Assembly (NCBI RefSeq): GCF_016863255.1
Contig: NZ_BOON01000028.1
Location: 122,659-186,658, forward strand
DNA from: Planosporangium mesophilum
GTDB lineage: Bacteria > Actinomycetota > Actinomycetes > Mycobacteriales > Micromonosporaceae
Length of the DNA stretch: 64,000 nucleotides
Direction: 5' to 3'
Below, piece after piece: positions 27,899-63,970 of this stretch. Every line of letters begins with the position of its first letter. The first letter of the stretch is position 1. A program made the translations under genes and the position numbers. The notes under the pieces are model-generated. The model saw only the letters and a program-made list of their open reading frames with translations, ran no database searches and was not told the origin of the DNA.

Positions 27899-28357
27899 AT
27901 GGACCGAACAACCCTTGCCTCGCCAGGAGCGTCCCCGGTACACGCACGGCAGTCCGACCGGCCGATCCGACGGGTGTCGGCCGACGACGTGCCCGCCGAC
28001 GTACGGCGTGGCGGCGAGATCCGTACCCTGCTGAGCCCCAAGACCGCCGGCTCGACGTCCGGCTTCCTCGGCCGGGCCGACATCGCGCCCGGACAGCGAA
28101 TCGCCGAGCACTACCACCCGTACTCCGAAGAGTTCATCTACCTGATCGAGGGTGAGCTCGTCGTCGACCTGGACGGCATGCCACAGCCGATGCGCCCCGG
28201 CGACGCGCTGCTGATCCCGCCCGGAACCCGGCACCGGCTGCGCAACCCCGGCACGGTACCGACCCGTTGCGTCTTCCACCTCGGCCCGCTCGCGCCCCGA
28301 CCGGAGCTCGGGCATGTCGATACCGAGACCGCCGGCAACCACGGAAGTGCGCGATGA
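27899..28357 (+). CDS. Cupin-domain protein of the spore-pigment polyketide cluster (WhiE ORFII/TcmJ-like)
   Basis: A 152-residue single-domain cupin. Motif 1 is [20 protein letters not shown], with the two His and a Glu for metal binding, and motif 2 is [19 protein letters not shown]. Related cupins occur in whiE- and tcm-type aromatic polyketide clusters and assist polyketide folding or cyclisation. It is first in the operon and its stop overlaps the KS-alpha start (ATGA). Confidence 0.85.
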
Positions 28358-29622
28358 CCAGGCGGGTCGCCGTCACGGGCATCGGCGTGGTCGCACCGGG
28401 CGGGATCGGGATCAAGGACTTCTGGGAACTGCTGGTCGACGGGCGGACGGCCACCCGCCAGATCTCCCTGTTCGACGCGGCGCCGTTCCGGTCGCGGATC
28501 GCGGCCGAGTGCGACTTCGACCCGGTGGCCGAAGGGCTGACCGAGGCCGAAGTGTACCGGCTCGACCGGCACATCCAGCTCGGGATCGTCGCCGCGCGGG
28601 AGGCGGTCGAGGACGCCGGACTGGCCGCCGGCGCGACCGACGGGTGGCGTACCGGCGTCGTCATGGGCACGGCGGTGGGCTCCACCACCCGGCTGGAGGA
28701 CGAGTACGTCGTGGTCTCGGGCGCCGGACGCGAGTGGGTGGTCGACGCCGACAACCCGCACCCGTACCTGTACCACGCGCTGGTCCCGAGCACGCTCGCC
28801 TCGGAGGTGGCCGGGGACAACGCGGCGCACGGTCCGGTGATGACCGTCTCCAACGGCTGCACCTCGGGGCTGGACGCGGTCGGCTACGGGTTCCAGTTGA
28901 TTGAGGACGGCCAGGCCGACGTCGTCATCGCCGGTGCGGCCGACGCGCCCATCTCCCCCATCACCGTGGCCTGCTTCGACGCGATCCACGCCACGAGCAC
29001 CCGCAACGACGATCCGGCGCACGCGTCGCGGCCGTTCGACGCCGACCGCGACGGTTTCGTGCTCGGCGAGGGCGCGGCCGTGCTCATCCTGGAGGAGTTG
29101 CAGCACGCCCGGCGGCGCGGGGCCCAGGTGTACTGCGAACTCGGCGGCTTCGCCACGTTCGGCAACGCGTACCACATGACCGGCCTGACCACCGAGGGCG
29201 TCGAGATGGCAGCCGCCATCACCTCCGCCCTCGACCAGGCGCACGCCAACCCGGACGAGGTCGACTACGTCAACGCGCACGGTTCGAGCACCCGACAGAA
29301 CGACCGGCACGAGACCGCGGCCGTGAAACGCAGCCTTGGCGACCACGCGTACCGCACCGCGATGAGCTCCATCAAGTCGATGGTCGGTCACTCGCTCGGG
29401 GGGATCGGCAGCATCGAACTGGTCGCGTGCGTGCTGGCGATGGAGAACGGGGTGATCCCGCCGACCGCGAACTACGAGACCCGCGACCCCGAATGCGACC
29501 TGGACTACGTGCCGCGGGAGGCACGGCCGGCCCGGCTGGACCTGGTGGTCAGCGTCGGCAGCGGGTTCGGCGGCTTCCAGTCCGCGGTCGTACTCGACGG
29601 CGCCGGCCGGAGGGCGCGATGA
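28354..29622 (+). CDS. Type II PKS ketosynthase alpha subunit (spore-pigment type)
   Basis: A 422-residue ketosynthase. The active-site Cys169 is in [13 protein letters not shown], with His309 ([13 protein letters not shown]) and His346 ([10 protein letters not shown]) completing the triad. It joins malonyl units on the acyl carrier protein, with KS-beta as partner. The sequence and the neighbouring cupin, aromatase and cyclase order resemble whiE-type spore pigment synthases. It overlaps genes on both sides by 4 bp, so the two ketosynthase subunits should be made in equal amounts. Confidence 0.93.
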
Positions 29623-30887
29623 TCCACCGCCGCGCCGTCCTCACCGGACTGGGCGTGGTGGCACCCACCGGGGGCGACACCGCCGAGTACTGGGAGACGA
29701 CGCTGGCCGGGCGCAGTGCGATCGGCCCGATCACCCGGTACGACGCGTCCAGGCACCCGGTGCGGCTGGCCGGCGAGGTCCGCGCCTTCGACGCCAGCGG
29801 CACCGTGGAGCAACGGATCCTCGCGCAGACCGACCTGTGGACGCACTTCGCGCTGGTCGCCGCGCAGCGGGCGCTCGCGGCCGCGAACCTGACCACCGTC
29901 GGCGGCAACGACTTCGGCATCGGCGTCACCACGTCCTCCTCGTCCGGGGGAAACGCCTTCGGGCAGCGCGAGATCCAGGCCCTGTGGTCCAAGGGTTCGA
30001 CGTTCGTCGGCCCGTACCAGTCGATCGCGTGGTTCTACGCCGCCTCGACCGGTCAGCTCTCGATCGCGCACCAGCTGCGCGGCCCCTGCGGTGTGATCTG
30101 TACCGAGGCCGCGGGCGGGCTGGACGCGCTCGCGCACGCCCGCCGGGTCATCCGCCGGGGTACCCGGGCGGTGCTCACCGGCGGCACCGAGGCGCCGGTC
30201 AGCCCGTACGCCGTGACCTGCCAGGTACCCGCCGGCACCCTCTTCACCGGCGCCGAACCGGCCCGCGCGTACCTGCCCTTCGCCCGCGACGCCGCGGGGC
30301 ACGTACCGGGCGAGGGCGGGGCGATGATGCTGCTGGAGGAGGCGGAGAGCGCCCGCGACCGGGGCGTTCCGGCCCTGGCCGAGGTGACCGGCTACGCGGC
30401 GGCCTTCACCGCCCCGTCCTTCGACCGGCAGGACGCCGGCGGCTGGGCCCCGACGGCACCGGCGCTGGCGGCCGCGATCCGCGGCGCGCTCGCCGACGCC
30501 CGTTTGTCCCCAGCGGACATCGACGCCGTGGTCGCCGACGCGGTCGGGGTCCAGGCCGCCGACCGGGCCGAGGTCGCGGCGTTACGGGCCGCGCTCGGCG
30601 AGCGGGCCACCCGGATCCCGGTGACCGCGCCGAAGGCCGGGGTGGGCCGGCTGTACTCCGGCGGCGCCGCGCTGGACGCGGCCACCGCCGCGCTGGCGAT
30701 CCGCGACGGCGTCCTGCCGCCGACCCCGTCGGTCACCGTGGCCGACCTCGACGAAGACATCGACCTGGTCACCGGCTCGGCGCGGCGGCTCGCCCTGGAG
30801 AACGTGCTCGTCGTCGCCCGCGGCTTCGGCGGGTTCGCCTCCGCCCTGGTGCTCAGCCGCGTGCCCGACCTCGCCTCTCACCTATAA
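29619..30887 (+). CDS. Type II PKS ketosynthase beta subunit / chain length factor
   Basis: A 422-residue partner of the ketosynthase that sets chain length. The catalytic cysteine is absent, as expected: the region reads [16 protein letters not shown]. By alignment with KS-alpha the Cys position is Ala164, where well-studied chain length factors carry a conserved glutamine (E-Q-A-G-G-L-D). This replacement is unusual and may affect malonyl decarboxylation for priming. The start overlaps the KS-alpha stop (ATGA). The C-terminal [11 protein letters not shown] is typical of the fold. Confidence 0.92.
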
Positions 30888-30898
30888 GGAGCTGACAC

Positions 30899-31658
<760 letters not shown>

Positions 31659-31685
31659 GCGCCGGGCGCGAGAGAGGAGGTCACC

Positions 31686-32318
31686 GTGCACCGAACCCTG
31701 ATCGTCGCCCGGATGAAGCCCGACTCCGAAGACGCCGTCGCCGACATCTTCGGCCGCTCCGACGAGACCGAACTACCCCGCCTCGTCGGCGTCCGGTCCC
31801 GCACCCTGTACCGCTTCCACGACCTGTACATGCACCTCATCGAGGCCGACGCGCCGGTCGGCCCCGAGGTCGACCGGGTCCGCGACGACCCGTTGTTCCG
31901 CCGGGTCAACGAGGAACTGACCGAGCACATCGACCCGTACGAGCCGGCCACCTGGCGGAGCCCGGCCGACGCCATGGCGACCGAGTTCTACCACTGGGAG
32001 GGCCCGGAACCGACCGGCGGCGTGGGGCGCCTGCGGGTCGTCTTCAGTGTGCGGGTGCCCGAACACGTACAGGAGCGGTTCCTGGCCACGTACGACCGCA
32101 TCTCGGCCGACATCGCCGCCACCCCCGGGCACATCGCGGACGAGGTGTGCCAGTCGGTGACGGACCCCTGCGAGTGGATCGTCACGAGCGAGTGGGAATC
32201 GCTGGAGCACTTCCTGGCCTGGAAGTCCGGCCCGGGCCACCTGGACCTGGTCGAACCGCTCTTCGTGGGCACGAGCCCCCGCACGCCGGTGCGCTACGTC
32301 GTACGCCGGCGGATCTGA
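31686..32318 (+). CDS. TcmI-type polyketide cyclase with a second monooxygenase-like (ABM) domain
   Basis: A 210-residue protein from a GTG with GAGGAGG upstream. Residues 1-105 match the TcmI/WhiE ORFVII cyclase (RTLIVARMKPDSEDAVADIF, then LYRFHDLYMHLIE). Residues 115-205 form a second dimeric alpha-beta barrel domain of the ABM type (VGRLRVVFSVRVPEHVQERF, ending EWESLEHFLAWKSG). The first domain should close later rings. The second could oxidise the product to a quinone, so the fusion may stand in for the separate oxygenase missing from this cluster (inference). Confidence 0.82.
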   Translation: MHRTLIVARMKPDSEDAVADIFGRSDETELPRLVGVRSRTLYRFHDLYMHLIEADAPVGPEVDRVRDDPLFRRVNEELTEHIDPYEPATWRSPADAMATEFYHWEGPEPTGGVGRLRVVFSVRVPEHVQERFLATYDRISADIAATPGHIADEVCQSVTDPCEWIVTSEWESLEHFLAWKSGPGHLDLVEPLFVGTSPRTPVRYVVRRRI

Positions 32319-32343
32319 TCCCTCTTTCGGAAAGGAGCGGCAG

Positions 32344-33084
32344 ATGAACCGCTGTGCGCTCACCTTCACCGTCCGGCCGGGTACCGAGTCCGACGTCGCA
32401 CGGATCCTGTCCTGGTACCCGCGCCCGGCGACGGGCGGGCCGCCCGGCCGGATACCGCTGGTACGGCGAGTTTCGGTGCTGCTCGCCGGCAACCGGGTCG
32501 TACGGGTGATGGAGGTCAACGGCGACCCGACCGAGGTACTGGTCGAACTGGGCCGGCGGCCGCGGATCCGGGCCCTGGAGGCGGCGCTCGACCCGTACCT
32601 GGAACAGCCCCGCGACCTGTCGCACCCGGACGGGGTGCGCGACTTCCTGGAACGCGCCCGCCTCGACCGGGTACACGACCGGGCGACGCCGGCACAGTTG
32701 CTGCCGACCGGCGGGCGGAAGTCGGCGCAGCGGGTGGTGCTGTCGTGTCCGGTACGGCCGGGGTGTGGCCTGGACGCCGCCCGACTGCTGGCCCGGATCC
32801 GGGACCTGACGCCGGAGACCCCGACGACCCTGGCGCGGACCACCATCTTCGCCCGGGGCGACGTCGTGGTGTGGGTCGTCGACGTCGCCGGGGAGCCGGA
32901 GGAGGGGCTCGACGGCCTCGCGGCGGTCGCGGTCGGGTCGGGGTGCGCGCGCGAGGTGAGCCGGTACGTCGACGCGGCGCACGACATCACGGGCCGGGCC
33001 GGCTTCCGGCGGTTCCTGACCACGCGCACGATGCGGATGCTGACCGACCGCCGGGCGGAGGTACCGTCGCCGATGCCCGCCTGA
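32344..33084 (+). CDS. SchA/CurD-like domain protein of the spore-pigment cluster, internally duplicated
   Basis: A 246-residue protein with two similar halves. Half one runs from RCALTFTVRPGTESDVARIL to HPDGVRDFLERARLDRV, and half two from RVVLSCPVRPGCGLDAARLL to GRAGFRRFLTTRTMRML. Both match the SchA/CurD-like domain known only from spore-pigment clusters such as sch and cur, whose biochemical role is unsettled. It is the last gene of the operon, with AAAGGAG before the ATG, and a long inverted repeat follows. Confidence 0.78.
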   Translation: MNRCALTFTVRPGTESDVARILSWYPRPATGGPPGRIPLVRRVSVLLAGNRVVRVMEVNGDPTEVLVELGRRPRIRALEAALDPYLEQPRDLSHPDGVRDFLERARLDRVHDRATPAQLLPTGGRKSAQRVVLSCPVRPGCGLDAARLLARIRDLTPETPTTLARTTIFARGDVVVWVVDVAGEPEEGLDGLAAVAVGSGCAREVSRYVDAAHDITGRAGFRRFLTTRTMRMLTDRRAEVPSPMPA

Positions 33085-33396: not shown

Positions 33397-36300
33397 ATGC
33401 GCAGCGGCGTGTTCGAGCGGTACACGGAAGACGACGGCGACCTGCGGGCGGAGTTGCTCGTACAGCCTGCGATCAATTACGCCCTGGTACACAACCGGGT
33501 ACCCGTGGTGCGGCACCTGGCGATCACCAGCCGGACCGGTCGTCCGCTCACCGACGTACGGGTCACGCTCGAACTGCTGGCGCCGGAGGGACCGCTCACG
33601 CCGCCGTGGTCGCGGACCGTCCCGGCCGAGCTCCCGTCCGGCACCGCGGTGGAGTGGGGGGACTTCGCCGAGTTCGTACCGGAGGCCGGCCGCCTGCGCG
33701 GCAACGACGAGGCGTTCCCGGTCGACTACCGGCTCACGGTCGCCCGGCCAGGGGTACCCGACCTGCGCCTGACCGCGCGGTCGTCGGTACTGGCGCACAA
33801 CGAGTGGTTCAACACTCCGGCCCTGTACGAGACGCTCGCGGCGTTCGTCCAGCCCAATACCCGTGCCGTCGACGCCGTCCTGCGGTCGGCGGCGCAGATC
33901 CTGCTCGACCGGACCGGATCCGGCTCCCTTCAGGGGTACCAGGCCGGCGCCGAGCGCGCGTCGCAGATCGCCGGCGCGGTGTACGAAGCGTTGCGCCGGC
34001 TCGGTATCCACTACCAGAACCCGCCCGCCTCGTTCGAGCACACCGGGCAGAAGGTGCGCGCCACGGCCGCCGTCCTCGACGGCCGGATGGGCAACTGCCT
34101 CGACCTGTCGGTCACGTACGCGGCCTGCCTGGAGGCGGCCGGGCTGCACCCGTTGATCTGGCTGACCGGTACCCACGCGTTCGCCGGCTTCCGGCTGGAC
34201 CCGGACCGGCTCGGCGACGCCACGGTCACCGAGACCAACCTGCTCATCTCGATGGTGCAGGCCGGTCGGGCGGTACCGGTGGAGCTGACCCGGATCGGCC
34301 CCGGTACCGGCAGCGCCGACTTCGCCGCCGCGGTACAGGCCGGACTCGCCCACTTCCGCGCCAGCGGCCAGGCACCGCTGGGCATGGTCGACGTCCACCT
34401 CGCGCACCGCAGCGGCGTCCGACCGCTGCCGTCGGCGGAGGCAGCGCCACCGCCGGGGGCACCGGCCGGCGCGGACGGGGTGGGCTCCATCGACCTGCCC
34501 GCCGGGGTGGCACGCACCTGGCTGCGCCCGCAGACCGAAGAGCGCGCACAGGCCGAAGAGCGCCCGCAGACCGAAGAGCGCGCACAGGCCGAAGAGCGCG
34601 CACAGGCCGAAGAGCGCGCCGAAGAGAAGCAGGCCGCGGGGAACGCGCGCGGCGAGGCCGGCGAGGACCGCCGCACCGAGACCAACCGGAAGGACCGCGC
34701 CGAGACCGGCGAGAACGGCCGCGACGAGGCGGCCGAGGACGAGACCGACGAGTCCCCGATCCGGGTGCGGCAGTGGAAGCGCTCCCTGCTCGACCTCAGC
34801 CTGCGCAACCCCCTGCTCAACCTGCCCCAGCGTGGACGCGGCCTCGACCTGCACGTACCGCAGGGTGCGCTGGCGCTGCTGGACGGCCTGGCCCACGAGG
34901 GGACCAGGATCCAGGTCATCGCCCAGGACGCGATCAGCCCGGTGCACGAGCTCACCGGCGCGCGGCGGGCGCAGGAACTCGACCCGGACATGCTGACCCG
35001 GGAGCTGCGCACCGACCACCGCATCTACGGCGCGGTCACCGAGCAGAAGTACGTCGCGACCATGCGCCGGCTCCAGCGGGACGCCCGCACGATGGAGCAG
35101 GAGACCGGCAGCAACTACCTGTACCTCACGATCGGCACGCTCGTACACGGCAAGGGCAGCGGCGCCGAGGCGCGCGCCCCGCTGTTCCTGCTGCCGGTGC
35201 GCATCGAGGGCGGGACCGGGCGGAGGCCGTACGTCTTCGTGGTCGACGGCTCGGAGTCCGCCGCGCCCAACTACTGCCTGGTCGAGTGGCTGCGCCGCAA
35301 GCACGGCGTGCAGATCCCGGAGCTGACGAACCCGGTACGCGACGACTACGGCATCGACATCGCGAAGACCCTCGCGGCGATCAACGCGAGGATCGTCGAC
35401 AGCCGCCTCAACTACCGCATCGACGAGACCGCGAGCCTGCGGCTGCTGCAGTTCTCCACGTACCAGATGTGGCGCGACCTGGCCGACCACTGGCCGACGT
35501 TCCTGGAGAACCCGGTCGTACGGCACCTGGTCGAGGCAGGCGGGGCCCGGTTCGACGACCCGGCCGGCATCGACCGGCCCGAGGTCGACGAGGCCGACCT
35601 GCACCTGCCGATCCCGGCCGACGGGTCGCAGATGCAGGCGATCGTCATGGCCGAACGGGGCCAGTCGTTCGTCCTCGAGGGCCCGCCCGGCACCGGCAAG
35701 TCCCAGACCATCACCAACCTCATCGCCCGGGCCGTCGCCGCCGGGCGCTCGGTGCTGTTCGTGGCCGAGAAGGAGGCCGCGCTCGAGGTCGTCAAGCGCC
35801 GACTCGGCCAGGTCGGGCTCGCGCCGTTCGCGCTGGACCTGCACGGGCGCAGGCAGTCGACCCGCGCCATCCGGGACCAGTTGCGCGAGGCGCTGGACCA
35901 GGTCGAGTACACCGACGACGCGAACTGGAAGGCGGTCGAGACCGGTTACCGGGCCCGGCTCGCCCCGCTCGCCGCGTACCCGGCTCTCGTCCACACCCCG
36001 AACCCGGCGGGCCTGTCCGCCTGGTCGGCGTACGAGCAGGCGCTCGCGTACGGCGAGGGGCCCAGCGCCCCCGTACCGCCGGACCACCTCACCGTCCCGG
36101 CCGACCAGCGCCGGCGCGTGGAGGCGGCGCTGCGCGGGTTTCCCGCGGCGGCCCGGTCGGCGCGGCTGCGCCCGGCCCACCCGTGGTCGCTGTCGGGCCG
36201 CCGGACGATGGACGGCCTGCACGCCGACGCCGTGACGCAGATCGCCGAGGAGCTGGAGGAGATCCGGCTGTCCGTTGTGGAGCGTCCGGCCCTCGTCCGG

Positions 36301-39300
36301 CTGCTCCGCGAGCTGCCCGGCCCCGCCGCGATCGGTGGCATCCTTCCGGTCGCCCGGCTCGCCGCCCGCGGCGCGCTGCCGGACGAGACGACCGTCCGGC
36401 AGGCCGGGGACGGACAGGCCATGGACGCCCGCTGGGAGGCGGCCGTCACGAACCTGCAGGAGGAGCTGAGCTGGTTCCGCCACGCGTACGCCGCCGAGCT
36501 GGCGACCTTCCAGCCGATGGTGTTCACGCTGGCCGAACTGCCCGCCTGGCACGCCGAGTCGCAGGAGGCCGGCAAGCGGATGTTCGGCCGGGGCAGGCGG
36601 CTACGGGCCGTGGCGAACCGGCTCGAACCGTACCTGCCGCCCGACGCGGTCCTCGACGCGAGGAACGTCGAGCGGGTCCTGGCCCGGCTGGTCGCCGCCC
36701 AGCGGCAGTCGACCGCGCTGCACCAGCGGACCCGGGCCATCGGCGGCCTACCGCTCCCGGCCGGCTGGCAGCCGACGAGCCCGGCCGCCGACACCGACCT
36801 GGCGCAGGCCAGACAGGCCAATGCGATCAGCCGGCAGCTCATGGCCAGGCACGCCACGGTCTGGCCGCTGCTCGCCGAAGGCATCTCCGACGGCGACGTG
36901 CGCGCCCTCGAAAAGCTCGCCGCCGGCTGGCGCGCCTGGCGCGGCCTGCTCCAGGCGAACCGGTCCAGCCTGCGGCTGTGGGCCGACGGCGGGCACTGGT
37001 TCGACGCCTGGCAGCGGGACGGCGCGAGCTGGCTCACCGACCTGCGCGTCGACAAGCTGTCGGCGGTGCGGCGGTGGGCCGCCGTGCTGGACTGCGCGGA
37101 CGCCCTGACCGACACCGGCCTGACCGAGTACCGCGACCGGCTGCTGCGCGGCGCGGTCGACCCCCGCGTCGCCGAGGAGGCGTACCACCGGGGCGTCGCC
37201 GCCTCCTCGCTGTCGGAGCGGCTGTGGGCCGGGTCGCTGGACTCCTTCGACCCCGACCTGCACGACAGCCACATCGAACAGTTCGGCGCGGCGGCCGAGC
37301 GGTTGCGCACCGCCCTGCTGGACCGCGTCCCGTCGACACTGGTACAGAACCGCCGGTTCGAAGCAGGTGGGCGGGTCGCCGAGTTCGCCGCCGAGCTGCG
37401 GCGCAACCGGGGCGGCAGGTCGTTCCGGGAGCTGTTCCAGGCGTACCCCGACGTGATCCTGGCCCTGACCCCGTGCGTCCTGGTCAGCCCGGCGTCGGTG
37501 GCGAACTTCCTCGCGCCCGGGGCCGCGCGCTTCGACCTGGTCGTCTTCGACGAGGCCTCGCAGATCCGGGTCCCGGAGGCGATCGGCGCGATGGGCCGCG
37601 GCAAGGCGGTGGTCGTGGTCGGGGACTCCCGCCAGCTGCCGCCGAGCCCGGTCATGCAGGTCTCGGCCGGCGAGGACCCGACCGACGACGACGGTACCGG
37701 CGACGACCTGGAGAGCATCCTCAGCGAAGCCGTCGAGTCCGGACTCCCCCAGCGCATGCTGACCTGGCACTACCGCAGCCGCGACGAGTCGCTGATCGCC
37801 TTCTCCAACCGTCATTACTACGAGGGCAAGCTGTCCAGTCTGCCCTCGCCCGGTACCGGTACCGCCACCGGCATCGGCTGGCGCCGGGTCGACGGCCACT
37901 TCGACCGGGGCGCGTCGCGTACCAACGAGGTGGAGGCGAGGGCGGTGGTCGCGGAGATCGCCCGGCGGCTGCGTGACCCGCGGACCGCGCACGACTCGAT
38001 CGGCGTGGTCACGTTCAACCTCCAGCAGCGCGACCTGATCCTGAACCTGCTGGAGGACAGCTCCGACCGGTTGATCCAGAAGAGGATGTCGCCGGACGCG
38101 GGCGAGCCGATCTTCGTCAAGAACCTGGAGAACGTACAGGGCGACGAGCGCGACGTCATCCTGTTCTCGCTGGCCTTCTCCACCAACCCGGAGACCGGCC
38201 AGCTCCCGTTGAACTTCGGGCCTCTCAGCCAGACCGGCGGAGAGCGCCGGCTGAACGTGGCCATCACCCGGGCCCGGCGCCAGGTCCTGCTGTTCGCCTC
38301 GTTCGACCCCGGCGACATCGACCTGTCCCGTACCTCCGCGCTGGGCACCCGGCACCTGCGTGCGTACTGCGAGCTGGCCGTCGCCGGGGTGGACCGGCTG
38401 GGCGTACCGACGCCGGGGCGCGGCCGCGGTGCCGAGCGGGTCCGGCAGGAGGTCGCGGACGCCATCCGGGCTCGGGGGCACGAGGTACGGGTCGGGTACG
38501 GGCTCTCCGACTTCACTGTGGACATCGCGGTACGGACTCCCGGCTCGAAGCGGTGGCAGGTGGCCGTGATGCTCGACGGCCCGCGCTGGGCCCGCCGCCC
38601 CACCGTGGCCGACCGGGACGGCGCGCCGACGCTGCTGCGTACCGTCATGGGCTGGTCGGACGTGATCCGGTTCTGGCTGCCGTCGTGGATCCACGACCGG
38701 AAGGCCCTGCTGGACCGGATCGACGCCGCGGTGGCTCGGGCAGCGGAGGCAGACGTCACCGCCGCCGCCGCGGCAGCGGAGGCCGAGGTCGTCGCCGTCG
38801 AGCCGCCGGCAGCCGCGCCGATCCCGGTCCCCGAGCCGGCGCTCACCGACCTCCCCGCGCCGCGAACCGCCACCGCCACGAGCAGCACCGCCACCGCCGG
38901 CGGTCGCCCGACGCCGGTACGGCTCACGCCGGCCCAGCGGTCGACCTCCGAGTACGTCCTCGTCGCGGCGCTGGCGGCGCCGCCGGCCCCCGACACCGAG
39001 ACCGCCACTGCGAACGGGGCCACTGCGAGCGGGGACAGAGAGGACGGGCTGGTCGCCTTCGTGCCGTACGAGCCGTCGCTGATCGGCAGCCAGTCCGACA
39101 TCGACGTCATCGGCAGTGACCCGCGGGTCCGGGCGCTCGTCCAGAGCAGCCTGCGCGAGATCATCGCCGCCGAGGGGCCGATCGAGGCGCACCGGCTCGC
39201 GAAGCTGACGCTGGCCCGCTTCGGGTTCGCCCGGCCCCGCGAGGACCGCCGCAACGCCGTACTGGCCCTGGCCGATCCGGGCGTGATCCGCCGGCACGAG

Positions 39301-39609
39301 GGCGTGGGCAGCTTCGCCTGGCCGACCAACCTCGACCCCAAGCGGTGGAACGGGTTCCGCACCACCGGGTCGAGGACCGACCGGGCCTTCGAGGAGATCG
39401 CCCCGGAGGAGGTCGCGAACGCGGTACGGCACGCGCTGGCGGCCACGCCGGACCTGACCGAGCAGGAGCTGTTCCGGGCGGCCCTGGAGCTGCTGGGCTA
39501 CCAGCGCCGGACGCAGAAGATCACCAAGCTGCTCCGGTACGGGCTGCTGGTCGCCCTGACCAGCGGCCGGGTGGTCCACGGCGGGCGCGGCCGGTACCGC
39601 TTGAGCTGA
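33397..39609 (+). CDS. Giant DUF4011 superfamily 1 helicase with transglutaminase-like, endonuclease-like and DUF3320-like regions (Hhe-like)
   Basis: A 2070-residue protein with GGGAGG before the ATG. Residues about 225-265 have a transglutaminase-like core (GNCLDLSVTYAACLEAAG, then THAFAGF). Residues 378-410 are a charged repeat. DUF4011 begins near 455 (RQWKRSLLDLSLRNPLLNLP). Helicase motifs: Walker A GPPGTGKSQT near 763, Walker B VFDEAS near 1380 with GDSRQLPPS, then WHYRSRDESLI, ENVQGDERDVILFSLAF and NVAITRARR near 1623. About 1678-1780 resembles a Vsr/MTES_1575-type nuclease, but the expected acidic residue of the E-C-D-G motif is replaced (VAVMLDG). The end matches DUF3320. This order is that of the single-gene Hhe antiphage protein. 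It stands alone, without a methylase or phage genes nearby. Confidence 0.85.
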   Translation: MRSGVFERYTEDDGDLRAELLVQPAINYALVHNRVPVVRHLAITSRTGRPLTDVRVTLELLAPEGPLTPPWSRTVPAELPSGTAVEWGDFAEFVPEAGRLRGNDEAFPVDYRLTVARPGVPDLRLTARSSVLAHNEWFNTPALYETLAAFVQPNTRAVDAVLRSAAQILLDRTGSGSLQGYQAGAERASQIAGAVYEALRRLGIHYQNPPASFEHTGQKVRATAAVLDGRMGNCLDLSVTYAACLEAAGLHPLIWLTGTHAFAGFRLDPDRLGDATVTETNLLISMVQAGRAVPVELTRIGPGTGSADFAAAVQAGLAHFRASGQAPLGMVDVHLAHRSGVRPLPSAEAAPPPGAPAGADGVGSIDLPAGVARTWLRPQTEERAQAEERPQTEERAQAEERAQAEERAEEKQAAGNARGEAGEDRRTETNRKDRAETGENGRDEAAEDETDESPIRVRQWKRSLLDLSLRNPLLNLPQRGRGLDLHVPQGALALLDGLAHEGTRIQVIAQDAISPVHELTGARRAQELDPDMLTRELRTDHRIYGAVTEQKYVATMRRLQRDARTMEQETGSNYLYLTIGTLVHGKGSGAEARAPLFLLPVRIEGGTGRRPYVFVVDGSESAAPNYCLVEWLRRKHGVQIPELTNPVRDDYGIDIAKTLAAINARIVDSRLNYRIDETASLRLLQFSTYQMWRDLADHWPTFLENPVVRHLVEAGGARFDDPAGIDRPEVDEADLHLPIPADGSQMQAIVMAERGQSFVLEGPPGTGKSQTITNLIARAVAAGRSVLFVAEKEAALEVVKRRLGQVGLAPFALDLHGRRQSTRAIRDQLREALDQVEYTDDANWKAVETGYRARLAPLAAYPALVHTPNPAGLSAWSAYEQALAYGEGPSAPVPPDHLTVPADQRRRVEAALRGFPAAARSARLRPAHPWSLSGRRTMDGLHADAVTQIAEELEEIRLSVVERPALVRLLRELPGPAAIGGILPVARLAARGALPDETTVRQAGDGQAMDARWEAAVTNLQEELSWFRHAYAAELATFQPMVFTLAELPAWHAESQEAGKRMFGRGRRLRAVANRLEPYLPPDAVLDARNVERVLARLVAAQRQSTALHQRTRAIGGLPLPAGWQPTSPAADTDLAQARQANAISRQLMARHATVWPLLAEGISDGDVRALEKLAAGWRAWRGLLQANRSSLRLWADGGHWFDAWQRDGASWLTDLRVDKLSAVRRWAAVLDCADALTDTGLTEYRDRLLRGAVDPRVAEEAYHRGVAASSLSERLWAGSLDSFDPDLHDSHIEQFGAAAERLRTALLDRVPSTLVQNRRFEAGGRVAEFAAELRRNRGGRSFRELFQAYPDVILALTPCVLVSPASVANFLAPGAARFDLVVFDEASQIRVPEAIGAMGRGKAVVVVGDSRQLPPSPVMQVSAGEDPTDDDGTGDDLESILSEAVESGLPQRMLTWHYRSRDESLIAFSNRHYYEGKLSSLPSPGTGTATGIGWRRVDGHFDRGASRTNEVEARAVVAEIARRLRDPRTAHDSIGVVTFNLQQRDLILNLLEDSSDRLIQKRMSPDAGEPIFVKNLENVQGDERDVILFSLAFSTNPETGQLPLNFGPLSQTGGERRLNVAITRARRQVLLFASFDPGDIDLSRTSALGTRHLRAYCELAVAGVDRLGVPTPGRGRGAERVRQEVADAIRARGHEVRVGYGLSDFTVDIAVRTPGSKRWQVAVMLDGPRWARRPTVADRDGAPTLLRTVMGWSDVIRFWLPSWIHDRKALLDRIDAAVARAAEADVTAAAAAAEAEVVAVEPPAAAPIPVPEPALTDLPAPRTATATSSTATAGGRPTPVRLTPAQRSTSEYVLVAALAAPPAPDTETATANGATASGDREDGLVAFVPYEPSLIGSQSDIDVIGSDPRVRALVQSSLREIIAAEGPIEAHRLAKLTLARFGFARPREDRRNAVLALADPGVIRRHEGVGSFAWPTNLDPKRWNGFRTTGSRTDRAFEEIAPEEVANAVRHALAATPDLTEQELFRAALELLGYQRRTQKITKLLRYGLLVALTSGRVVHGGRGRYRLS
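34528..34617 (+). repeat. 18-bp in-frame tandem repeat, five units
   Basis: Five 18-bp units encode P-Q-T-E-E-R or A-Q-A-E-E-R and form a charged helical spacer between the transglutaminase-like part and DUF4011 in the giant helicase. The number of units probably varies between strains. Confidence 0.85.
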
Positions 39610-39978: not shown

Positions 39979-40111
39979 CTACGCCGCGGCGCGAGTACCC
40001 GGGCCGCGACGTGGACTGCCCCGGCGGCGACCGGCAGCAGCACGGCCGCGGTGGCCGCCTGCGCCGGGGTCGTCGGCTGCGGGAGGAGTGGCCACGTACG
40101 ATCGGGACCCC

Positions 40112-41608
40112 ATGAGCCCTACCCCCCTCGCGACGACGGCGCTGATCGAGACCGTGCTCGACCCCGGCACCTGGCGGTCCTGGGACGAGCCCCTGCCGGA
40201 CCCGGCGGAGCTGGATGCCGCGTACGCCTCCGACCTGGAACGGGCCCGCGCCGAGACCGGCCTCGACGAGTCGGTCCGCACCGGTGAGGGCCGCATCGGC
40301 GGGCACCGGGTCGCGGTCGTCGTCTGCGAGTTCGCCTTCCTCGGCGGCTCCATCGGGGTCCACTCCGGCGAGCGCCTGACCCGCGCCGTCGAGCGCGCCA
40401 CCCGGGAGCGGCTGCCGCTGCTGGCCTCCCCCGCCAGCGCCGGCACCCGGATGCAGGAGGGCACCTTGGCCTTCCTCCAGATGGCCAAGGTGACCGCGGC
40501 GATCACCGATCACCGCGCCGCCGGGCTGCCGTACCTCGTGTACCTGCGCCACCCCACCACCGGGGGCGTGCTGGCCTCGTGGGGTTCGCTCGGGCACCTG
40601 ACCGTGGCCGAGCCCGGGGCGCTCGTCGGCTTCCTCGGCCCCCGGGTCTACCGGGCGCTGTACGGCAAGCCGTTCCCGCCCGACGTCCAGACCGCCGAGA
40701 ACCTGCACGCCCACGGCCTGCTCGACGGGGTACTCAGCCGGGAGCAGCTGCCCGACGCCGTCACCCGCGTGCTCGACGTGCTGTCCGCCGCCGGATCAAC
40801 CCCCGACATGACAGCCGCCGCGCACACAGCGCCGAGCCCCACCCCCGCCGCCGAGACCATCCGCCGGTCCCGTCGGCCCGAGCGGCCGACGGTACGGGCC
40901 CTGCTGCGCGCGGTCGGGCGAGACGTGACACCGCTCAGCGGCAGCGGTGAGGGCGAGGCGGATCCGGGGCTGCTGCTCGCGCTCGCCCGCATCGGCGCGG
41001 TCCCCTGCGTCGTCATCGGCCACGACCACGACGCGGACCGGCGTCCCCGCGCGATCGGGCCGGCCGGGCTGCGCATCGCCCGCCGCGGCATGCGGCTCGC
41101 CGCCGAACTGGGCCTACCGCTGCTGTCGGTCATCGACACCGCCGGCGCCGAGCTGTCACCCGAGGCCGAGGAGCACGGACTCGCCGGGGAGATCGCCCGC
41201 TGCCTGGCCGACCTGATCACCTTGCCGACCCCGACGCTGTCCCTGCTGCTGGGCGAGGGCGCCGGCGGGGCCGCGCTGGCCTTCTTCCCCGCCGACCGGG
41301 TCGTCGCCGCCGAGCACGGCTGGCTGTCACCGCTGCCGCCCGAGGGCGCCTCGGAGATCCTGTACCGCACGACCGACCGCATGGGTGAGATCGCCGACCG
41401 GCAGCGGGTGCAGTCCACGGCCCTGTACGCCCGGGGCGCCGTGGACCGCGTCGTCGCCGAGCACCCGGACGCCGCGGACGAACCGGCCGCTTTCCTCGAC
41501 CGGATCGGCGCGGTCATCGAAGACGAACTCCTCCGGCTACGGCAACAGGATCCCGCCGCCCGGCTGGCCGGGCGGCGGGCCAGGTACCGGGGCCTCGGGG
41601 TCAGCTAG
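40112..41608 (+). CDS. Fused acetyl-CoA carboxylase-type carboxyltransferase (AccD-AccA)
   Basis: A 498-residue protein with two crotonase-fold carboxyltransferase halves. The N half (about 40-235) is beta-like, with [34 protein letters not shown] and [15 protein letters not shown]. The C half (about 270-490) is alpha-like, with [17 protein letters not shown] and [20 protein letters not shown]. The zinc-binding cysteines of the classic AccD N terminus are absent. It should move a carboxyl group from biotin to an acyl-CoA, but no biotin carrier or carboxylase gene is nearby. The acyl-CoA specificity is unknown. Its stop overlaps the convergent GH1 gene by 8 bp. Confidence 0.82.
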
Positions 41609-61458: not shown

Positions 61459-63477
61459 TTGTTCCCCGGCCGCAGCAGGCTCTCACACGCCGCCCGACGC
61501 GGCATCGACAACGTCCGGGCCACCGTCACGGCGGTGCGCGCCGCCGCTCCCCATCGGAAACGGGTCGCCGTACGCGCAACGCTGAGCATGACCCTCCCAC
61601 TGGCGATCGGCGTCGCGGTGGGTCACCCCGCCTGGGGCGCCCTCGCCTCGATGGGCGGCTTTGCCGGCTTCTACGGCTCCGACACGCCGTACCGGTACCG
61701 CGCCCGCCTCGTCGCCGGGATCGGCGCCGCCCTCACCCTGGGGGTGCTGCTCGGCGGGCTCGCGTCCACGCGCGGCTGGCTCGCCCCGCTCGTCGCCGGC
61801 GCGGTCGCCGGCGCCACGTCGTTCGTCTGCCAGGCCGCTGAGATCCCGCCGCCGCGCGAGTACCTGATCGTGCTCGCCACCCTGGCCGCGACCGGAATCC
61901 CGGTACCCGCCGACCAGGCGCTGTGGAACGCCGGCCTGACCGCGGCCGGGGCTGCGGTCGGCTGGCTGGTGACCATGTCCCCGGCGCTCGGTAGAGCCCG
62001 CGCCCCGGAGCGCCGGGCGGTACGCGCCGCGCTCGAAGCGGTCGCCGGGTTGCTCGCCCGTACCGGCGGGCCGGACGCCGGCGCCGCCCGCCACCAGGCT
62101 GTCACCGCCGTGCGACGGGCCCGCCGCGCCGTCATTCAGGGGGTACTCCCCGCCGACCACCGGCTCACCCGCTCGCTGACCGCCATCGAGGAACTGCTCG
62201 AGGCGGCCCTCCACGTCGAGGTGGAAGCGTCCGCCCCGCTGGATACCGGCTGGGCCACGGCGGTACGCGCCCTCATCCCGGCGGTCGCGCGCCGTACCGC
62301 GGCGGACGTACAACTCTCGGTGTCATCGCCCGCCTCCGGCGGCGGGTCGGTGTCATCGCCCGCCTCCGGCGGCGGGTCGGTGTCATCGCCCACCGCCGGC
62401 GGCGGGTCAGCGTCATCGCCCGCCCCCGGCCCCCTGCCGGACGCGATCGAGCAGGTACGGGCCGCCCTCGCCGGGGCGGACACCGCCGCCCCGGACCAGG
62501 AGCTGACCGGCCTGCCGGCCTGGCCGGGCATCCGCCCCCAGCTACGGGCGGCCGCACGCGGCCACTCGGTCATCCTGCCGGCGGCCGCCCGCCTCGGGAT
62601 CGCGGTAGCGGCCGGTGCCGGCATCGGCCGCGCCCTCGGACTGGACCACTCGTACTGGGTCGGCCTCACCGCGGCCGCGGTACTGCTCGCCACCAACTCC
62701 GCCAACACGCTGCGCCGCTCGGTGCACCGGATCGCGGGGACGGTGGCCGGGGTCGCGCTCGCGTACACGCTGCTCGCGGGCCACCGATCGTGGGTGGTCG
62801 TGGTGGCGGGCGTGGCGCTGTGCCAGTTCGCGTCGGAGATGATCATCACCGCCAGCTACGGCCTCGCGGTCGTGGGTATCACCGTGCTCGCGCTGGTGCT
62901 GTTCCACATCGGTACGCCCGGTGCCGACGTCGGCGTCACCATCGGCGCCCGCATCACGGACACGGTGCTCGGCGCGGTACTCGCGCTGATCCTGAGGTCG
63001 GTGCTGTGGCCGCGGGCCACCGCCGCCCGGTTGCCGCAGGTACAGGGGCGTACCCTCCGCTCGGTCGGCCGCGTGCTGTGCGCGCTCTGGTCGGACAGCG
63101 GGGACGGGCGGGATCTGGGGGACGGGCGGCGCCTGCTCCAGTCCGAGCTGGCGACGCTGCGGGCGGTACACACCGACGCCCTCGCCGACGACCGGGCCGC
63201 CTCGCCGGACACCGATCTGCGCTGGCCGGTCACGGTCGCCATCGAGGAGCTGGCCTTCCTCGCGCTCTCCCTGCCCCGGTACCGGAATCCACCGCCGCCC
63301 GACACGGTATGGGCCTTCCGGCGCAGTCTGAACGAGATCGCGGGCGCCGTCGACGGGTACGCCTCCGCGCCGGCCGCGGTAACGCCGGTGCCGGGCTACC
63401 CGCGTACCTCCGCCGCGCTCGGTGTGCTCGCGGCCGCCGTGACCGACGCGGATCGGCACCGTTTCCGGTGCGGGTAG
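61459..63477 (+). CDS. FUSC-family aromatic-acid exporter-like membrane protein
   Basis: About 672 residues from a TTG; the start is uncertain, since no better codon is in frame. Two blocks of membrane helices (about 45-180 and 370-510) are separated by a cytoplasmic part, the FUSC/AaeB layout. The second block contains GLDHSYWVGLTAAAVLLATN and RRSVHRIAGTVAGVALAY, the FUSC signature. Related AaeB and FusC proteins export aromatic acids or fusaric acid. A Gly/Ser-rich linker repeat lies between the blocks. The divergent MarR gene fits control by a phenolic ligand (inference). Confidence 0.82.
   Translation: MFPGRSRLSHAARRGIDNVRATVTAVRAAAPHRKRVAVRATLSMTLPLAIGVAVGHPAWGALASMGGFAGFYGSDTPYRYRARLVAGIGAALTLGVLLGGLASTRGWLAPLVAGAVAGATSFVCQAAEIPPPREYLIVLATLAATGIPVPADQALWNAGLTAAGAAVGWLVTMSPALGRARAPERRAVRAALEAVAGLLARTGGPDAGAARHQAVTAVRRARRAVIQGVLPADHRLTRSLTAIEELLEAALHVEVEASAPLDTGWATAVRALIPAVARRTAADVQLSVSSPASGGGSVSSPASGGGSVSSPTAGGGSASSPAPGPLPDAIEQVRAALAGADTAAPDQELTGLPAWPGIRPQLRAAARGHSVILPAAARLGIAVAAGAGIGRALGLDHSYWVGLTAAAVLLATNSANTLRRSVHRIAGTVAGVALAYTLLAGHRSWVVVVAGVALCQFASEMIITASYGLAVVGITVLALVLFHIGTPGADVGVTIGARITDTVLGAVLALILRSVLWPRATAARLPQVQGRTLRSVGRVLCALWSDSGDGRDLGDGRRLLQSELATLRAVHTDALADDRAASPDTDLRWPVTVAIEELAFLALSLPRYRNPPPPDTVWAFRRSLNEIAGAVDGYASAPAAVTPVPGYPRTSAALGVLAAAVTDADRHRFRCG
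62321..62430 (+). repeat. 30-bp in-frame tandem repeat, about 3.7 copies
   Basis: Units begin at 62321, 62351, 62381 and 62411 (partial) and encode S-S-P-A-S-G-G-G-S-V. The first two are identical and the others carry a few changes. They form a flexible linker in the FUSC-type protein and are prone to copy-number change. Confidence 0.9.
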
Positions 63478-63853: not shown

Positions 63854-63970
63854 CTAGGCACCTTCGACGCGGTCGTCTTCGCTGGCCGGGTACGACACGC
63901 CCTCGTCCGGGATATCCGCTCGTGCGGTATCGGCTTCACAGTAACCGCATCCCGGGCGGCAGCAAGACAT
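63854..63970 (-). CDS. Tiny Cys-rich protein, 38 residues, upstream of the SMR exporter
   Basis: An ATG at 63970 opens a 38-codon frame that begins MSCCRPGCGYCEADT and ends with an acidic tail. Four cysteines fall in C-C-x-x-G-C-x-x-C spacing, suggesting metal or redox binding. The frame ends 6 bp before the SMR start, so translational coupling is possible. Codon bias is moderate and no family is recognised; it could be a microprotein or a regulatory leader peptide. Confidence 0.45.
   Translation of the reverse strand: MSCCRPGCGYCEADTARADIPDEGVSYPASEDDRVEGA

What the first reader, a model, noticed from the sequence alone, without database searches (positions are those of the whole stretch)
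33397..39609. Hhe-like DUF4011 helicase with an added transglutaminase-like region and an altered nuclease site
Seen: one 2070-residue protein carries DUF4011, a full SF1 helicase, a Vsr/MTES_1575-like region and a DUF3320-like end. Known: this order is that of Hhe, a single-gene antiphage system reported in a large screen of defence genes. Here an N-terminal transglutaminase-like core (GNCLDLSVTY and a later THAF) is added, and the nuclease core reads VAVMLDG where an acidic residue is expected before the D-G. It may be a subtype that damages or blocks rather than cuts, or that uses the protease-like domain as effector.
Basis: partly seen in the sequence, partly recalled or inferred. Interest (0 to 1): 0.75.

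Follow-up and report, generated by a model that had tools for sequence, protein, structure and literature searches.

The report
Antiphage helicase with altered nuclease site
This gene encodes a giant protein of an already named antiphage family that joins a predicted transglutaminase-like domain, a helicase and a nuclease-like domain lacking the glutamate and histidine usual at its likely active site, so it likely stops phages by some means other than ordinary DNA cutting.

Summary
In detail: one intact 2070-residue frame carries an N-terminal transglutaminase-type fold, DUF4011, an SF1 helicase, an MTES_1575 nuclease-like domain and a weak DUF3320 match. The label needs correcting: it is not Hhe plus a new domain. 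It passes the curated cut-off of NCBIfam 'anti-phage protein ProA' (1722.5 against 1500) and fails that of Hhe (524 against 2000); a fusion of this kind was described in 2013. The lost acid is real but shared by whole branches: of 139 non-redundant relatives, 18 keep an acid at 1725 with a histidine at 1732, 118 lack both, 2 keep only the acid, 1 lacks the domain. All 80 scorable rows of the actinobacterial ProA clade lack both, yet three aspartates and an arginine nearby stay 97-100% conserved: remodelled, not decayed. Helicase motifs are intact in 139 of 139 rows, the transglutaminase Cys/His in 115. The window's own clade has deleted that module three times, in frame. Location varies between congeners. 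Likely mechanism: helicase sensor with an exchangeable protease-like effector and a non-cutting nuclease fold; untested.

The parts
33397..39609 (+). proA-family gene, 2070 aa: the whole predicted single-gene system
   Evidence: ORF; NF058533 antiphage_ProA 1722.5 bits, cut-off 1500; one match in the window's own genome
33397..33801 (+). N-terminal beta-sandwich, about residues 1-135
33814..34431 (+). transglutaminase-like domain, about residues 140-345
34096..34098 (+). C234, predicted nucleophile
   Evidence: invariant in 23 of 23 close rows; C in 116 of 131 rows, C and H together in 115 of 139
34174..34176 (+). H260, predicted catalytic histidine
   Evidence: H in 122 of 131 rows; 23 of 23 close rows
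34282..34284 (+). E296, predicted third residue (E, or D in some relatives)
   Evidence: invariant in 23 of 23; E 112, D 14 of 131 rows
34524..34740 (+). repetitive linker (QAEERA-type), longer than in aligned relatives
   Evidence: tandem repeats, periods 18, 24 and 36; insertion against 22 homologues
34786..35292 (+). DUF4011, residues 464-632
   Evidence: Pfam 7.4e-26
35620..38298 (+). SF1 helicase (AAA_11 to AAA_12), residues 742-1634, with a long insertion between the two halves
   Evidence: Pfam; K768 and D1385-E1386 in 139 of 139 rows
38446..38730 (+). MTES_1575/Vsr-type nuclease fold, residues 1684-1778
38521..38523 (+). D1709, retained aspartate of the fold
   Evidence: D in 99% of 118 rows without the E/H pair and 100% of 18 with it
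38569..38571 (+). M1725, where nuclease-type relatives have E
   Evidence: the E of VEADG in 3hrl aligns here
38575..38577 (+). D1727, retained aspartate of the D-G
   Evidence: 97% of 118 and 100% of 18
38590..38592 (+). A1732, where nuclease-type relatives have H
   Evidence: H in 18 of 18 E/H rows (by definition of the group) and in no row without the acid
39139..39606 (+). C-terminal DUF3320-like region (winged helices in the 2013 description of related proteins)
   Evidence: DUF3320 below cut-off, 17.3 against 25; wHTH overlapping DUF3320 (PMC3710099, passages)
28354..33084 (+). upstream neighbours: type II polyketide synthase genes (ketosynthase pair, cyclases, SchA/CurD); context, not part of the system
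   Evidence: Pfam; no PADLOC hit at E<=0.01 in 10 neighbours

Best explanation
The gene encodes a member of the ProA family that likely works alone as an antiphage sensor: its SF1 helicase motor would engage invading nucleic acid and switch on the predicted transglutaminase-fold cysteine protease at its N terminus, while the nuclease-like domain likely grips DNA rather than cutting it. Shown by sequence: intact helicase motifs, an intact Cys/His/Glu set in a predicted transglutaminase fold, and a nuclease-like domain without the E and H that accompany each other in nuclease-type relatives. Inferred: that the E/H pair is catalytic, that the transglutaminase fold cleaves protein, that the helicase controls it, and that the C-terminal region reads DNA. 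The effector end looks exchangeable: some relatives add a HEPN domain, some lose the transglutaminase cysteine, and some of the window's closest kin have deleted the module.
Against: The transglutaminase module was deleted in frame three times among 9 distinct proteins of the window's clade, with the rest kept, so it is not required for whatever keeps the gene. D1709, D1727, D1739 and R1740 are 97-100% kept in rows without E/H, which would suit a nuclease that still works by altered chemistry. The window gene's tested neighbours have 0 of 10 PADLOC hits and include polyketide genes; a scan of 127 neighbour against 127 control genes was inconclusive. No activity data for this protein were found, nor the publication behind the name ProA.
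Confidence: 0.42

Rival explanations
1. The nuclease domain still cuts: D1709, D1727 and D1739 would bind the metal and R1740 or another group would replace E/H, so the protein would be a DNA-degrading helicase-nuclease, with the transglutaminase as a further line, as proposed in 2013 for related proteins.
For: D1709 99%, D1727 97%, D1739 97%, R1740 100% in 118 rows without E/H; Vsr-like fold; 2013 proposal (PMC3710099, passages).
Against: Acid and histidine vanish together: H is never seen without the acid in 138 scorable rows, and R1738 is 100% in the 18 E/H rows but mostly A in the others. The retained residues could be structural, and 4 rows (L099, L137, L142, L150) lose D1727 as well.
Confidence: 0.27
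2. The helicase motor alone is the effector: it would strip or block phage replication intermediates, and the transglutaminase and nuclease folds serve regulation or binding.
For: Helicase motifs are the only catalytic set intact in 139 of 139 rows. The 13 rows with a replaced transglutaminase Cys or His all lack E/H too. Three in-frame transglutaminase deletions in the window's clade.
Against: C (90%) and H (93%) are far above the transglutaminase domain mean of 54% (129 rows), which a mere scaffold would not need.
Confidence: 0.22
3. It is a DNA-maintenance or other house gene rather than defence.
For: No PADLOC hit in 10 neighbours here; Upf1-like helicases also have house roles (recalled); a large DUF4011 gene, whose type I did not test, flanks P. 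aeruginosa hotspot cDHS1 in every isolate (PMC10250203, passages).
Against: Patchy within a genus (5 of 16 over cut-off), different locations among congeners, and a site shared with a restriction-type gene in one non-carrier.
Confidence: 0.09

Closest known systems
ProA (NCBIfam NF058533, anti-phage protein ProA; PADLOC candidate PDC-S37)
   Same: Match over the curated cut-off, transglutaminase region included
   Different: A Pseudomonas and a Methylobacterium member score higher (2198 and 2106 bits) and keep the nuclease E/H pair; the window protein lacks it
MTES_1575-type giant proteins (Anantharaman et al. 2013, PMC3710099; passages read)
   Same: Transglutaminase, SF1 helicase and Vsr-type nuclease in one protein, with a DUF3320-like end (weak here)
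   Different: The window protein lacks their N-terminal HEPN domain. The passages read do not mention loss of nuclease residues, though a Microbacterium protein (L089, from the genus of MTES_1575) also lacks E/H
Hhe (NCBIfam NF042953, 'Gao Hhe')
   Same: DUF4011, SF1 helicase (grouped as Upf1-type) and MTES_1575-like part align
   Different: Score 524 against a cut-off of 2000. No Hhe over the cut-off was found in 296 genomes; the best match there, L032 (847 bits of Hhe, 1169 of ProA, under both cut-offs), has E/H and no transglutaminase region
RAP-domain proteins of the mitoribosome (9g6k, 9i05)
   Same: Best PDB sequence match of the nuclease profile (E 1.5e-4); D...VDG kept, E absent
   Different: Not helicases; ribosomal proteins. 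An analogy for non-cutting use of the fold (recalled), not a family claim

Membership tests
ProA (NF058533) | whole-protein score over the curated cut-off of 1500 bits | tested here: met
   1722.5 bits
ProA (NF058533) | transglutaminase region at model positions 1-323 | tested here: met
   287.8-bit stretch, model 1-323, window residues about 27-355
ProA (NF058533) | protection against phage | not testable with these tools
   no assay; source paper not found
nuclease-type (E/H) branch of the ProA family, as defined here | acid at 1725 and H at 1732 | tested here: not met
   M1725 and A1732
Hhe (NF042953) | score over the curated cut-off of 2000 bits | tested here: not met
   524 bits
HEPN-bearing MTES_1575 giant proteins (2013) | transglutaminase + SF1 helicase + Vsr-type nuclease | tested here: met
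HEPN-bearing MTES_1575 giant proteins (2013) | C-terminal winged helices (overlapping DUF3320) | tested here: inconclusive
   DUF3320 match below its cut-off; region not modelled
HEPN-bearing MTES_1575 giant proteins (2013) | N-terminal HEPN domain | tested here: not met
   Pfam reports none for the window protein; the modelled beta-sandwich starts at about residue 7
transglutaminase-like superfamily | transglutaminase fold with Cys, His and a third acid | tested here: met

The most novel reading that the evidence does not exclude
Across two large bacterial branches the Vsr-type nuclease of this defence family has been converted, as a unit, into a non-cutting DNA-binding or damage-sensing module, and killing passed to exchangeable front-end effectors (transglutaminase-type protease, HEPN ribonuclease). 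In the window's own clade that front end was then cut out three times, leaving natural variants that defend with a bare motor.
Probability: 0.25. Interest if true: 0.65.

Novelty: new variant of a known kind. Interest (0 to 1): 0.45.

Why it matters
The family is widespread, yet no mechanism turned up in the papers searched here. Coordinated loss of acid and histidine with retention of the aspartates separates nuclease-type from remodelled members, and close relatives with and without the transglutaminase offer ready natural comparisons. Together they make the question 'which module kills?' directly testable, and warn against calling every MTES_1575 domain an active nuclease.

Tried and rejected
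Hhe plus an added transglutaminase: rejected by curated scores and by the 2013 description. No Hhe over its cut-off was found in 296 genomes, so the comparison rests on the model and on proteins under its cut-off.

Defence island around the window gene: 0 of 10 neighbours match PADLOC at E<=0.01. A wider comparison (127 of 200 called neighbour genes of homologues in 11 genomes, against 127 drawn at random from 212 control genes of 10 of these genomes; frames over 1300 aa and proA itself dropped) gave 74 against 35 matched models; of the 25 shown on each side most are kinase models hit by one to three proteins: inconclusive. 'Within 8 kb' was measured to the end of the stretch next to proA, but in L070 and L071 to either end of the stretch. 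Insertion into a polyketide operon: not settled, since the SchA/CurD neighbour has no match in the three congeners and matches in 14 of 121 genomes of the family (the window's own included), mostly weakly. Five more non-carriers share the left flank of the g4 site (G003, G082, G130, G133, G143), but the right flank was not found in the 8-20 kb fetched, so they say nothing.
Full report
What is there. The frame 33397-39609 (+) is one intact gene of 2070 codons with strongly coding base use (0.744/0.518/0.944 GC by codon position). Pfam places DUF4011, two halves of an SF1 helicase and an MTES_1575 domain over their cut-offs and DUF3320 below its cut-off. The window's own genome has one match, on contig C28. 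One congener contig (G053:C28, 115,948 bases) has the length reported for the contig of the Planosporangium thailandense homologue P0003, so the genome is probably Planosporangium or near it; likewise G146:C1 (718,602 bases) fits a Micromonospora record (P0032), so genus g4 is probably Micromonospora. Both are inference.

Family. NCBIfam names it anti-phage protein ProA (1722.5 bits, cut-off 1500); Hhe reaches 524 of the 2000 needed. PADLOC gives PDC-S37, a candidate model (868.6 bits), ahead of Hhe (367.4). The ProA model includes the transglutaminase region (positions 1-323). Passages of Anantharaman et al. 2013 (PMC3710099) describe giant proteins with HEPN, transglutaminase, SF1 helicase, Vsr-type DNase and winged helices, MTES_1575 among them, and propose DNA recognition by the winged helices, DNA cleavage, suicidal RNase action and a further line of protein cleavage. 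I did not find the paper behind the name ProA in the library held.

Set of relatives. I put together the window protein, the proteins of 88 of 129 loci with a matching frame (1500 aa or more; the window's own L010 and L049 and the duplicate L072 left out) and 150 of 160 database proteins (1800 aa or more): 239 rows, reduced at 85% helicase identity to 139 (the window, 80 loci, 58 database proteins). Helicase K768 and D1385-E1386 are present in 139 of 139. Transglutaminase Cys and His: both in 115, one or both replaced in 13, domain not seen in 11; of these 11, L023, L024 and L025 are cut by the stretch held, and L012, L016 and L032 were set to 'not seen' by me because only stray letters aligned. 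Nuclease positions 1725 and 1732: acid (E in 17, D in L016) plus H in 18, neither in 118, acid without H in 2 (L024, L145), H without acid in 0, domain absent in 1 (L118). The solved homologue 3hrl reads D...VEADGGQH here, which supports E as the usual acid and puts a histidine within one residue of the other site; that both are catalytic is inference. In the 118 rows D1709 is 99%, D1727 97%, D1739 97% and R1740 100% conserved against a domain mean of 55%: the site is remodelled rather than decaying. The best PDB sequence matches of the nuclease profile are mitoribosomal RAP-domain proteins, which read VDG without the E (E 1.5e-4).

Tree. On DUF4011 and helicase columns only (FastTree, 1171 columns) the E/H pair needs at least 7 changes. 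It is absent in the 80 scorable rows of an 81-row clade in which every row with a named origin is actinobacterial, and in all of a 33-row clade of Bacillota, Bacteroidota and others. It is present in the 13 rows named as Pseudomonadota (10), Myxococcota (2) and Acidobacteriota (1). Actinobacterial genomes also hold Hhe-like proteins outside that clade: L016 and L032 keep acid and H, L024 the acid, L023 and L025 neither. Several deep branches are long, so the count is approximate.

Natural deletions. Among the window's closest kin, L013 (genome G073) and P0082 pass from residue 19 to about residue 315 in frame; P0088 (Planosporangium flavigriseum; L012 of G022 is identical in the part compared) and P0046 have other junctions; each keeps the first 10-30 residues and the rest of the protein. 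On a careful tree of 21 rows (19 different) this needs 3 changes, within a clade of 9 distinct proteins of which 4 lack the module. Of the 160 database proteins, 155 have the module, 3 show internal deletions (P0046, P0082, P0088), P0104 starts after it and P0119 is a fragment. The module is therefore discrete and dispensable in some settings.

Where the gene sits. Here it lies about 310 bases behind the last gene of a type II polyketide cluster and before a carboxyltransferase gene; none of 10 neighbours matches PADLOC. In congeners G022, G053 and G073 it lies just upstream of a GGDEF gene. The window's genome has that gene on contig C32, with no match to proA in the 16 kb held around it. In genus g4, 5 of 16 genomes pass the cut-off. 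Two carriers (G045, G095) share left and right flanks with non-carrier G122, where the interval instead holds a GmrSD-type gene (PADLOC Orf5, 1.9e-90); a third carrier (G146) shares the left flank. This resembles a variable defence site, but rests on one comparable non-carrier. The broader neighbour scan was inconclusive.

Mechanism. Shown: architecture, conserved motifs, remodelled site, deletions, variable location. Inferred: the motor engages foreign nucleic acid, the C-terminal region reads DNA, the transglutaminase fold acts as a protease, and the nuclease fold binds. I give 0.42 to a helicase-controlled protease effector, 0.27 to a still active nuclease, 0.22 to a motor-only effector and 0.09 to a non-defence role.

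Noticed in passing
window 28354-33084 and 40088-41608: Type II polyketide genes (ketosynthase pair, cyclases, SchA/CurD, carboxyltransferase) around proA; the SchA/CurD neighbour has no match in the three congeners.
   Followed up: partly
window 63866-63933 (-): Guanidine-III riboswitch just over its gathering score (36.9 against 36), close to the FUSC-type gene 61588-63477.
   Followed up: no
window 34524-34740: In-frame tandem repeats in the linker between transglutaminase and DUF4011, longer than in 22 aligned relatives.
   Followed up: partly
L077, L083, L085, L088, L089, L096, L118, L121: Relatives with an N-terminal extension carrying an R-N-x3-H HEPN-type motif; all eight keep the transglutaminase Cys/His, and the seven with a scorable nuclease domain lack E/H.
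   Followed up: partly
L099, L137, L142, L150: Relatives (Bacillota) in which D1727 of the nuclease site is also lost while transglutaminase Cys/His stay.
   Followed up: no
L059:422-3853: In G146 a kinase-TPR gene and a UvrD-type helicase gene lie directly upstream of proA; a pair of like size (406 and 718 aa) lies near proA in G126.
   Followed up: no
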